DNA of 39,177 bases, taken from the NCBI RefSeq assembly GCF_017635265.1, contig NZ_JAGBLU010000132.1, forward strand, positions 1 through 39,177. Direction: 5' to 3'. The stretch comes from Butyrivibrio sp. (GTDB taxonomy: Bacteria; Bacillota; Clostridia; Lachnospirales; Lachnospiraceae). Positions 7,016 to 36,509 of this stretch are shown one piece after another; position 1 is the first letter of the stretch; every line of letters begins with the position of its first letter. Under the pieces are notes generated by a model that was not told the DNA's origin, searched no databases, and saw nothing but the letters and a program-made list of their open reading frames with translations. Both the position numbers and the translations under genes were made by a program.

Positions 7016-7042
7016 GCATGAAAACAAAGTGGAGCATTTTTG

Positions 7043-7135
7043 TTTGATAGAAATTTTTCTATCAAATAAAAAACTCCCCCTAAAACCACAAAAACACACG
7101 CGAGGCGTGTGTCTGCGGTTTCTTATGAGGGGGAG
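7043..7135 (+). other. Nested-hairpin stretch between recJ and murE
   Basis: First, an 11-bp palindrome (7043-7053 with 7056-7066). Then three nested helices: CTCCCCC (7074-7080) with GGGGGAG (7129-7135), AAACC (7083-7087) with GGTTT (7117-7121), and an 8-bp stem 7094-7101/7105-7112 with a GAG loop. There is no T run after it, so it is not an ordinary terminator. It could be a small structured RNA, a processed leader of murE or a 3' stabiliser of recJ. I match it to no riboswitch class I know. Confidence 0.5.
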
Positions 7136-13916: not shown

Positions 13917-13967
13917 AAAACAGCCTTAAGATGATACACTATAACGTATCCTTTTAAGGCTTTTTTA
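13917..13967 (+). terminator. Terminator after the amino acid transporter
   Basis: GCCTTAA (13923-13929) pairs with TTAAGGC (13954-13960) followed by TTTTTT. An inner GATAC/GTATC stem (13933-13937 with 13945-13949) extends the hairpin. This isolates the transporter from fmt. A TATAAT at 13977-13982 just after it is a likely -10 for fmt. Confidence 0.85.
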
Positions 13968-23989: not shown

Positions 23990-25360
23990 ATGAAAGAACG
24001 TGAAAATTTGGGGAGCAGATTGGGATTTATACTTCTGTCCGCCGGATGTGCAATAGGCATTGGAAATGTGTGGCGATTCCCATATATGGTTGGAGAAAAT
24101 GGCGGAGGAATATTTGTTTTATTCTATGTGTTGTTTTTATTGATCCTTGGAGTGCCGATCATGACTATGGAGTACTCCATGGGAAGAGCTTCCAGAAAGA
24201 GTATAATGCCGGCCTACAAAATGCTTGAAAAAACAGGAACCAAATGGCATTTGGTGGGATATATGGCTATGGCAGGCAATTACATCCTGCTTATGTTTTA
24301 TTCGGTAGTTTCCGGATGGATGCTCAGATACTTTGTTTTAATGGTGACAGGTGGCTTTGATAAGGCTTCTACAAGCGATGTAAAGAGCATCTATCAGAGC
24401 ATGATGGATAATCCTCTTGTAATGATATTCTACATGGTGATCACTATGGTCATTACAGTAATTGTATGCTCGCTGGGACTACAGAACGGCGTGGAGAAGG
24501 TTACCAAAATAATGATGATAGCACTTATTTGTATCATGATTGTTTTGGGAATCAATTCAATTGTTCTTCCGGGGGCAAGTGAAGGAATATCTTTTTATCT
24601 AAAGCCCAATATGGACAATGTCAGAAATGTAGGAATCGGAAAAGTTTTATATGCTGCACTGAATCAGAGCTTTTTTACACTCAGCCTTGGAATAGGCAGT
24701 ATGGAAATTTTTGGCAGCTACATTGCCAAGGAAAGAAGTCTTGCCGGTGAAGCGATACTTGTTGCGGGACTTGACACTTTTGTAGCTGTAGTAGCAGGCT
24801 TTATTACTATTCCGGCATGCTTTGCCTATGGGGTTGCACCTGACAGCGGACCAAGTCTTATATTTCTTACTCTGCCCAACGTGTTTGTATCTCTTCCGGC
24901 AGGAAGGATATGGGGGAGCCTGTTCTTTTTATTTATGTACTTTGCGGCACTTTCAACTATGATTGGTGTTTTTGAAAATGATGTTAGTTTTCTCATTGAT
25001 ATACATGGTATGCACAGGAAAAAAGCTTCCATGATAGCAGGGATTATCATAACAGTCGGCTCCATACCATGTGCACTTGGATTTAATGTGTGGAAGTCTT
25101 TCCAACCTTTAAAGGCAGGAAATACTATTATGGATCTGGAGGATTTCATACTCAGCAATCTGATGCTTCCGATAGGGGCGCTTATATGTTGTATATTCTG
25201 TACCACAAAATACGGTTGGGGATTTGATAACTATATCAATGAAGTAAACAACGGAGAAGGACTTAAAGTAAGCAGAAAACTCAGCTGGTACTTCAAGTAT
25301 GTTCTTCCGATAGTAATCGGCTTTCTCGTGATTTATGGTCTGATCACATACTTTTCGTGA
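23990..25360 (+). CDS. Sodium-dependent transporter, NSS/SNF family
   Basis: LeuT-fold symporter bringing in an amino acid or related solute with Na+. The first membrane helix GCAIGIGNVWRFPYMVGENG carries the sodium/substrate-binding unwound motif of the family and is followed by about ten more hydrophobic segments in 456 residues. ALNQSFFTLSLGIGSM matches the TM6-like substrate region. Substrate not assignable. It stands alone; the next 880 bases hold the giant palindrome. Confidence 0.92.
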   Translation: MKERENLGSRLGFILLSAGCAIGIGNVWRFPYMVGENGGGIFVLFYVLFLLILGVPIMTMEYSMGRASRKSIMPAYKMLEKTGTKWHLVGYMAMAGNYILLMFYSVVSGWMLRYFVLMVTGGFDKASTSDVKSIYQSMMDNPLVMIFYMVITMVITVIVCSLGLQNGVEKVTKIMMIALICIMIVLGINSIVLPGASEGISFYLKPNMDNVRNVGIGKVLYAALNQSFFTLSLGIGSMEIFGSYIAKERSLAGEAILVAGLDTFVAVVAGFITIPACFAYGVAPDSGPSLIFLTLPNVFVSLPAGRIWGSLFFLFMYFAALSTMIGVFENDVSFLIDIHGMHRKKASMIAGIIITVGSIPCALGFNVWKSFQPLKAGNTIMDLEDFILSNLMLPIGALICCIFCTTKYGWGFDNYINEVNNGEGLKVSRKLSWYFKYVLPIVIGFLVIYGLITYFS

Positions 25361-25371
25361 CAACTAGTAGA

Positions 25372-26068
25372 GCCTGATTTTCTTTCGGCACCCGTCCCCA
25401 AACTCCCAACTTACCGCTGCGGGGGCGATGCCATATGTGCTTTTTTCTTATCGTTTCGCGTTTTGGTGTTCATGGCATTTAATTTTCTTAATTTTAATCC
25501 TATGTCACAAAACTCGTATTCAAGCGTTTTGTACCCTTGTGCGCAGGGCAGTTTTGGCTTTGCTGATTTCGCGAAAATGCCATTTTTCTTGTGCTCATAG
25601 GCAGCTTTGTCAGCGCATGCGGAAACGATTGTCTGAGCAGGACAAAAATACAGATAAATCAGTCTTGCCCACTTTGTGGGCATATAGGCAGAAATAAAGA
25701 GGCTTTCTTCCAAGCTTTTATAAGTTTGGAAAAAGCCTCTTTTTCTGCCATAGGTGCGTAGCACCCAGACCGATTTATCTGCATTTTTGCCCTGCGAGTT
25801 TTCGTTAAAGCATGCGCATTAAAGAAAAGCTGCATGAGCACATAGAAAAGTTTCATTTTCGTGCCTGAAGCAAAACGAAACTGCCCTGCGCACAAGGGCA
25901 TAAAACGCTTGAATACTCAAACATGTTGCGACAAAGCAGGATTAAAATCAAGAAAATTTAACGCTCATGGACACTTCAAAACGCTCTTAGACGCGAAAAA
26001 AGCACATATGGCATCGCCCCCGCAGCGGTAAGTTGGGAGTTTGGGAAGAAAATGAAAGAAAATCAGGC
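25372..26068. repeat. Giant imperfect palindrome (about 345-bp arms)
   Basis: The whole gene-free stretch between the NSS transporter and the EAL gene is one inverted repeat centred near 25720. The outer ends match for 15 bp (25372-25386 with 26054-26068). Inside these, 25397-25447 is the exact reverse complement of 25995-26045, a perfect 51-bp match. The arms then align imperfectly to the centre, with conserved blocks such as AAGCGTTTT, CCCTTGTGCGCAGGGCAGTTT, GCGCATGC and CAGATAAATC. The centre is a 16-17-bp hairpin. Small ORFs occur in the arms but lack ribosome sites. It could be a dispersed repeat, an inverted pair of one element, or the gene for a long structured RNA. Confidence 0.85.
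25697..25745. terminator. Central hairpin of the palindrome, bidirectional terminator-like
   Basis: AAGAGGCTTTCTTCCAA (25697-25713) pairs with TTTGGAAAAAGCCTCTT (about 25725-25741) and T runs follow on both strands (TTTTT 25740-25744 on +). It could end transcription of the NSS transporter gene and block readthrough into the EAL gene. Confidence 0.6.
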
Positions 26069-26151
26069 TTTGGATTTGTATAAAAGATGTTAAGGCAATA
26101 GAGGCACACTTGGTAAACTAAATAACATGCATAAGTGTTCTGAATATGGAA

Positions 26152-36473: not shown

Positions 36474-36509
36474 AGGCATATACAGAAAATGTTTTGTATA
36501 TGCCTTTTT
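36474..36509 (+). terminator. Terminator after the coiled-coil gene
   Basis: AGGCATATACA (36474-36484) pairs with TGTATATGCCT (36495-36505), followed by TTTTC. Confidence 0.85.

What the first reader, a model, noticed from the sequence alone, without database searches (positions are those of the whole stretch)
25372..26068. A ~700-bp near-complete palindrome fills the largest intergenic gap, with a perfect 51-bp inverted repeat near its ends
Positions 25397-25447 and 25995-26045 are exact reverse complements, the outer 15 bp also match, and the arms keep aligning, with changes, all the way to a central hairpin. A transcript from either strand could fold into one very long hairpin. Long perfect palindromes are usually unstable, so persistence of diverged arms with conserved ends suggests selection or a widespread repeat family. 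The end block (starting CCCAAACTCCCAACTTACC) gives me an impression of being a recurring Lachnospiraceae intergenic repeat, which I cannot verify here.
Basis: partly seen in the sequence, partly recalled or inferred. Interest (0 to 1): 0.75.

Follow-up and report, generated by a model that had tools for sequence, protein, structure and literature searches.

The report
Giant-hairpin jumping element in Butyrivibrio
The 700-base palindrome is one copy of a family of gene-less mobile DNA elements in Butyrivibrio bacteria that fold into one giant hairpin and tend to lie at gene ends, in this case apparently inside a transcription terminator.

Summary
The palindrome is real: window 25371-26069 aligns to its own reverse complement over its full length, with an exact 51-bp pair. 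It is not a one-off. Two more copies lie in this genome, and a model of one conserved arm segment hits 29 of 79 genomes of the genus. I collected 78 distinct palindromes longer than 250 nt. Younger copies look mobile: 13 of 78 carry terminal repeats close to GTTACYATTCACAG at both ends, against 0 of 78 for a reversed control, and four of these have exact 8-bp target duplications. An IS66-family transposon of the genus carries the same ends. In three relatives the window's gene pair is separated by a short gap holding a terminator-like hairpin; the palindrome appears to sit in that hairpin's loop, so its outermost 16-bp arms are the split stem. The arms covary, but G-T pairs are hardly commoner than A-C mismatches, which argues against a structured RNA. 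Best reading: a non-autonomous, probably IS66-mobilised, giant-hairpin element tolerated at gene ends. The window copy itself lacks recognisable terminal repeats. What keeps the hairpin folded is unresolved.

The parts
25371..26069 (.). whole palindrome, including the native stem at its edges
   Evidence: self-reverse-complement alignment; folds
25371..25386 (.). probable left half of the split native terminator stem (outermost arm)
   Evidence: 100% complementary to 26054-26069; aligns with the terminator-like hairpin of three relatives that lack the palindrome
26054..26069 (.). probable right half of the split native terminator stem
25397..25447 (.). perfect 51-bp outer stem, left arm; variable between copies
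25995..26045 (.). perfect 51-bp outer stem, right arm
25584..25643 (+). conserved inner left arm segment
   Evidence: aligned across 21 copies
25789..25850 (+). conserved inner right arm segment, basis of model R1
   Evidence: 32 of 64 alignment columns invariant in 20 copies
25667..25681 (.). small hairpin at the tip, GCCCACTTTGTGGGC
   Evidence: folds; sequence
25687..25749 (.). central hairpin, A-rich before and T-rich after, resembling a two-way terminator
   Evidence: (I7), crude scan; not listed by the terminator scan
25753..25765 (.). small hairpin at the tip, GGTGCGTAGCACC
   Evidence: folds; sequence
23990..25360 (+). upstream gene, SNF-family sodium symporter
   Evidence: Pfam PF00209
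26238..28133 (+). downstream gene, EAL-domain protein
   Evidence: Pfam PF00563

Best explanation
It is a degenerate copy of a non-autonomous, gene-less mobile element of Butyrivibrio that is nearly all palindrome. Shown: homologous copies lie at many loci; younger ones have GTTACYATTCACAG-type inverted ends and 8-bp target duplications; an empty site and decayed sites exist in a related genome; the gene pair of the window lies close together, without palindrome, in four relatives. Inferred: an IS66-family transposase acting on the shared ends moved it; the window copy landed in the loop of the upstream gene's intrinsic terminator and has since lost its recognisable ends; insertion at gene 3' ends is tolerated, perhaps because the element carries a two-way terminator-like hairpin at its centre. 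The pairing of the arms is kept up by selection on the folded DNA strand, by arm-to-arm copying, or both; the data do not decide.
For: Copies: 3 in the own genome; model R1 hits in 29 of 79 genus genomes, up to 17 hits in one; 78 distinct palindromes longer than 250 nt. Ends: 13 of 78 copies with the terminal repeat (3 or fewer mismatches) at both ends and 6 at one end, against 0 and 1 for the reversed pattern; target duplications 8/8 in L014, L017, L060, L063, 7/8 in L115, 6/8 in L075. Orthologous sites, 5 pairs compared: L115 against L197 is a clean insertion; L014 against L195 fits, with 33 extra bases of another repeat; the L017 site keeps only a 47-bp end-to-end scar; the L005 site keeps a shrunken hairpin; L023 against L196 is nearly empty but without terminal repeats. 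Transposase: L249 is a 3204-bp contig that begins and ends with GTTACTATTCACAG and encodes a protein 97% identical to the 584-aa IS66 transposase of L160 (L160 matches NF033517 with 193 bits against a cut-off of 180). Window: same gene pair 158, 159 and 161 bp apart in G065, G098 and G012 and 193 in G064, counted from the last sense codon, without a palindrome; 880 in the window; hairpins of -28.1, -28.0, -22.8 kcal/mol at the place of the outer arms in G098, G012, G065. Position: 83 of 128 flanking gene sides are 3' ends, P 0.001; median distance 25 bp to 3' ends, 119 bp to 5' ends.
Against: The window copy has no terminal repeat (best match 6 mismatches) and I saw no target duplication. 65 of 78 copies lack the repeat at one or both ends, and 7 of the 13 with both ends match in only 2 to 5 of 8 flank bases. 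The L160-type transposase is found in 15 of 79 genomes; 5 of these are among the 29 with hairpin-model hits, and 5.5 would be expected by chance, so the two are not associated; it is not detected in G031, G001, G063 or the own genome, though these carry copies. The own genome has other IS66-type hits. Movement was not observed. Loop insertion is not general: of the 13 copies only L063 and L046, and weakly L115, sit in a hairpin loop. In G064 no strong hairpin stands at the window's site (-9.4 kcal/mol). The terminator scan listed neither the central hairpin of the window nor the relative's hairpin in L276; I did not examine why.
Confidence: 0.7

Rival explanations
1. A structured RNA (regulatory RNA or RNase III substrate) whose folded transcript is selected.
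For: Very stable fold on both strands; covariation, 651 double changes keeping Watson-Crick pairs against about 230 in shuffles; positions unpaired in one clade tend to be unpaired in another (43-70 shared against 20-28 expected, 10 of 10 comparisons).
Against: At consensus pairs, single changes to G-T and A-C are equal (320 and 310, besides 857 other mismatches, one of four groups read on the other strand; swapping it gives 322 and 308). Over 69 copies 576 G-T and 568 A-C (same strand error for part of the copies); over five groups read on one strand 316 G-T against 255 A-C, P 0.012, a small excess in favour of this rival. Structured RNAs prefer G-U strongly (recalled, no control run). No Rfam family at its gathering score. 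Orientation to flanking genes is even. No sigma-70-like promoter.
Confidence: 0.12
2. The hairpin has no function: arm-to-arm copying by template switching in replication keeps the arms alike, and the element is pure selfish or dead DNA.
For: Outer stems are nearly perfect in many copies although they differ between copies; no clear wobble preference; unpaired and paired columns are equally conserved, 0.575 and 0.564, unpaired higher in 19 of 30 triples; decay by a deletion that fits slippage between short direct repeats.
Against: In the core, unpaired positions persist in shared places next to covarying pairs, which long copying tracts should erase. Uncorrected random pairs also stay unpaired, so this is suggestive only.
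Confidence: 0.35
3. The element is kept as a two-way terminator or insulator between genes.
For: 33 tandem, 25 convergent, 6 divergent of 64 scorable copies; 40 of 83 3'-end sides within 20 bp of the palindrome; in a crude scan 26 of 69 centres have a hairpin with both A-rich and T-rich flanks, 0 of 138 quarter points.
Against: Survivorship alone would place copies at gene ends; 36 of 69 centres fail both halves of the scan; some sites still have a terminator-like hairpin next to the copy (by eye in L011 and L005 flanks).
Confidence: 0.3
4. A one-off inverted duplication without a role.
For: None found.
Against: 78 distinct copies, target duplications, an empty site.
Confidence: 0.01

Closest known systems
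MITEs of prokaryotes (review PMC10969869, passages read)
   Same: non-coding, multicopy, intergenic, terminal inverted repeats and target duplications in young copies, foldable, decaying copies that lose ends
   Different: 71 of 78 palindromes are 510-807 nt and palindromic throughout; the MITE sizes I saw in that review's passages are about 150-235 bp; arms covary across species
IS66-family transposons
   Same: terminal repeat GTTACYATTCACAG shared exactly with L249 and with at most one mismatch with L251 and L254; 8-bp target duplication as recalled for IS66
   Different: no transposase inside; the transposase is not detected in several genomes that carry hairpins and the two are not associated across the genus; I did not compare the interiors
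SPRITE repeats of Streptococcus pneumoniae (named in passages of PMC10969869)
   Same: small repeat with terminator-like hairpins in intergenic places
   Different: no sequence comparison was made; the palindrome here is far longer (SPRITE length recalled as short) and, in the window, appears to sit inside a terminator
Integron attC sites (recalled)
   Same: imperfect palindrome that could act as a folded DNA strand with unpaired bases in set places
   Different: several times longer; no cassette array or integrase link was looked for

Membership tests
MITE | no transposase or other protein gene inside | tested here: met
   three ORFs of at least 80 aa inside the window copy, no Pfam match at E 0.001
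MITE | many related copies at different loci | tested here: met
MITE | terminal inverted repeats recognised by a transposase | tested here: inconclusive
   13 of 78 copies at both ends, 0 of 78 control; not met by the window copy itself (best 6 mismatches); recognition not tested
MITE | target site duplication | tested here: inconclusive
   8/8 in 4, 7/8 in 1, 6/8 in 1 of 13 copies with both ends; not seen for the window copy
IS66-derived element | ends shared with an IS66-family transposon | tested here: inconclusive
   L249 has GTTACTATTCACAG at both ends, as the young copies do; not met by the window copy
IS66-derived element | partner transposase in the same genome | tested here: not met
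   no match to the L160 transposase in G000, G031, G001, G063; present in G064, which also has copies; G000 has other PF03050 hits
IS66-derived element | mobilisation by the transposase | not testable with these tools
   needs a transposition assay
Structured RNA family | match to a curated family | tested here: not met
   no match at gathering score; five weak ones below it
Structured RNA family | covariation with G-U pairs preferred over A-C | tested here: inconclusive
   covariation present; G-T 316, A-C 255; equal among changes at consensus pairs
Integron attC-like folded DNA site | recognition of the folded strand by a recombinase | not tested
   no biochemical data

The most novel reading that the evidence does not exclude
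The folded single DNA strand is the functional unit: a DNA hairpin with arms of about 300 bases, set unpaired positions and a branched tip, selected as DNA for recognition by a protein in replication or transposition, and aimed at hairpin-forming terminators as targets. This would be a mobile element that lives as a DNA shape, far larger than attC sites.
Probability: 0.13. Interest if true: 0.85.

Novelty: new variant of a known kind. Interest (0 to 1): 0.57.

Why it matters
Long palindromes are thought to be quickly lost from bacteria (recalled), yet genomes of this genus carry up to 17 model hits of an element that is almost entirely one imperfect palindrome, mostly 510-807 nt, with arm pairing kept across species. 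It offers a natural system for asking how cells tolerate giant hairpins, how arm pairing is maintained, and whether transposons choose terminator hairpins as targets. It also warns genome annotators: several contig ends in these assemblies fall inside such copies.

Tried and rejected
Rfam search: nothing at gathering score. blastn in the plasmids and phages collections: no match. First idea that the arms are a structured RNA: weakened by the wobble counts. In some searches the G063 copies had been read, wholly or in part, on the opposite strand; one search repeats the work with them turned, and gives a small G-T excess that the earlier counts hid. Idea that unpaired positions are more conserved than paired ones: the direct comparison favours it in 10 of 10 pairs, but a test with flags from a third clade does not, so I dropped it. 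The canonical IS66 element of G064 (L205) does not carry these ends at 2 or fewer mismatches. Model hits in another genus (G346, 13 hits): nine regions fetched and the automatic loci gave no palindrome longer than 250 nt, so I do not count them as members. Orthologous sites: flanks of 9 loci were prepared and 5 of them searched; the L010 flanks fell on two contigs of the other genome and were not compared. Pairs of copies flanking genes as composite transposons: looked at L093 only, no clear case. Papers: the searches listed no title or abstract start that describes this family; most subscription journals are not in that library, so this is no proof that it is unpublished.

Full report
What is there. 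Window 25371-26069 is one imperfect palindrome of 699 bases between an SNF-family symporter gene (ends 25360) and an EAL-domain gene (starts 26238), both on the + strand. The fold is one long stem with internal loops ending in a junction of three small hairpins. Chance is excluded (E 2.5e-117; 0 of 20 shuffles in each).

It is a family. The own genome has two further copies, 87% identical over 585 bases and 71% over 430. Among 61 genomes (own genome included) blastn found matches in 7, all of one genus. A sequence model of the conserved right arm segment (20 copies) hit 29 of 79 genomes of the genus at E 0.01, and 6 of 397 genomes drawn from the family at E 0.001, two of them in the genus. A self-reverse-complement test on all loci held at that point gave 78 distinct palindromes longer than 250 nt, 71 of them 510-807 nt. 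By my tally of the locus lists they come from 26 of the 29 genomes with hits; G036, G011 and G016 gave none.

Anatomy. Aligned in one orientation, 21 copies share inner arm segments around GCATGCG on both sides (output cut; 32 of 64 columns of the right segment invariant in 20 copies). The outer stems differ between copies but remain largely complementary within a copy. The centre is a hairpin, often with A-rich and T-rich sides, flanked in the window by two small hairpins.

It moves. Some copies end in GTTACCATTCACAG or GTTACTATTCACAG in inverted orientation. Within 60 bases outside and 130 inside the palindrome edges, 13 of 78 copies have this repeat at both ends with at most 3 mismatches and 6 more at one end; the reversed pattern gives 0 and 1. 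Of the 13, the 8 bases outside the repeats agree 8/8 in L014, L017, L060 and L063, 7/8 in L115, 6/8 in L075, and 2 to 5 of 8 in the other seven. Five orthologous sites were compared between two related genomes. L115 against L197 is a clean insertion. L014 against L195 agrees with an insertion, but the other genome has 33 more bases of a separate short repeat. At the L017 site the other genome keeps a 47-bp scar of the two ends, as a deletion between short direct repeats would leave. At the L005 site it keeps a shrunken hairpin. L023 against L196 is nearly empty, without terminal repeats.

What may move it. The same 14-base end stands at both ends of a 3204-bp contig (L249) that encodes a protein 97% identical to the 584-aa IS66 transposase of L160 (family assignment of L160). 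L251 and L254 show these ends with at most one mismatch. The transposase was found at E 1e-20 in 15 of 79 genomes of the genus, but not in G000, G031, G001 or G063, which carry hairpins. Five of the 15 are among the 29 genomes with hairpin-model hits, where chance gives 5.5 (my tally). Absence of the partner is common for old non-autonomous elements (recalled), yet it leaves the link as inference.

The window copy. Of 30 loci fetched with the upstream gene (the window's own among them), four others have the downstream gene next to it: G065, G098 and G012 with 158, 159 and 161 bp from the last sense codon to the next start, and G064 with 193, none with a palindrome; the window has 880. In G098, G012 and G065 a hairpin of -28.1, -28.0 and -22.8 kcal/mol with a T-tract stands there, and it aligns with the outermost 16-bp arms of the window; G064 has no strong hairpin at that place. 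So the palindrome most likely entered the loop of the native terminator. The window copy has no recognisable terminal repeat, so it is filed as a relative of mobile copies, not as a proven member by its own ends. Loop insertion is also seen for L063 and L046 and weakly for L115, but not for the rest of the 13.

Where copies sit. Of 78 copies 64 had clear neighbours: 33 tandem, 25 convergent, 6 divergent. Every gene has one 3' and one 5' end, so half of the 128 sides should be 3' ends; 83 are (P 0.001). Median distance is 25 bp to 3' ends (40 of 83 within 20 bp) and 119 bp to 5' ends (5 of 45). Gene calls were simple longest ORFs, and distances are from the palindrome's edge. Survivorship alone could cause this.

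What holds the arms together. In four groups of copies (44 sequences), consensus pairs show 651 cells with a double change that keeps a Watson-Crick pair, against about 230 when partners are shuffled; single changes to G-T and A-C number 320 and 310, other mismatches 857 (the G063 group was read on the other strand, and swapping it changes this to 322 and 308). A first count over 69 copies gave 576 G-T and 568 A-C (same strand error for G063 copies). With five groups (47 sequences) on one strand, all pairs give 316 G-T, 255 A-C, 1204 other mismatches, 11875 Watson-Crick; the G-T excess is small (P 0.012). This speaks against strong selection on an RNA helix. Positions unpaired in one clade are unpaired in another 1.7 to 2.9 times as often as expected in 10 of 10 comparisons, but their bases are no better conserved than paired ones when judged by a third clade (0.575 against 0.564). 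Arm-to-arm copying, selection on folded DNA, or both, remain open.

Terminator at the centre. A crude scan finds a hairpin with both A-rich and T-rich flanks at 26 of 69 centres and at 0 of 138 quarter points; 36 of 69 centres fail both halves. The session's terminator scan did not list the central hairpin of the window. The idea that the element brings its own two-way terminator is therefore plausible, not shown.

Literature. I read passages of PMC10969869, PMC4853749 and PMC13155455 and search listings otherwise. None of what I saw describes this family. Verdict: a new, unusually large, palindromic variant of the MITE kind.

Noticed in passing
G001 and G031, query positions about 395-451 (for example L199 from 926): A short hairpin repeat of about 37 bp (AAAATGAGCCC..CCTCCGTCCCTAG.GCTCATTTT) occurs about 60 times in each of the two genomes, several as closely spaced inverted pairs.
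   Followed up: no
L157, L158, L159, L161, L164, L165, L173: Segments with the GTTACTATTCACAG end lie next to different genes (ABC transporter and acetyltransferase by eye, a caspase-domain protein by Pfam), some beside IS66 transposase remnants, as if IS66-type elements carry passengers.
   Followed up: partly
L204 (G001:C16) and L167 (G031:C12): Tiny elements of about 45 bp made of the two terminal repeats and little else; the first is the scar of a giant hairpin at the same site in the related genome.
   Followed up: partly
G031, G001 and G036 contig ends (for example L209-L214): Several contigs of these assemblies begin or end inside a hairpin copy, so copy numbers in draft genomes are probably too low.
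   Followed up: no
G346, 13 hits of model R1, loci L127-L135: Arm-like sequences in a second genus of the family, several as close pairs, without a palindrome longer than 250 nt in my test; possibly a distant or decayed branch.
   Followed up: partly
window 7037-7072, 13917-13966, 36474-36505: Three short palindromes of 32-50 bp, perhaps ordinary terminators or operators.
   Followed up: no
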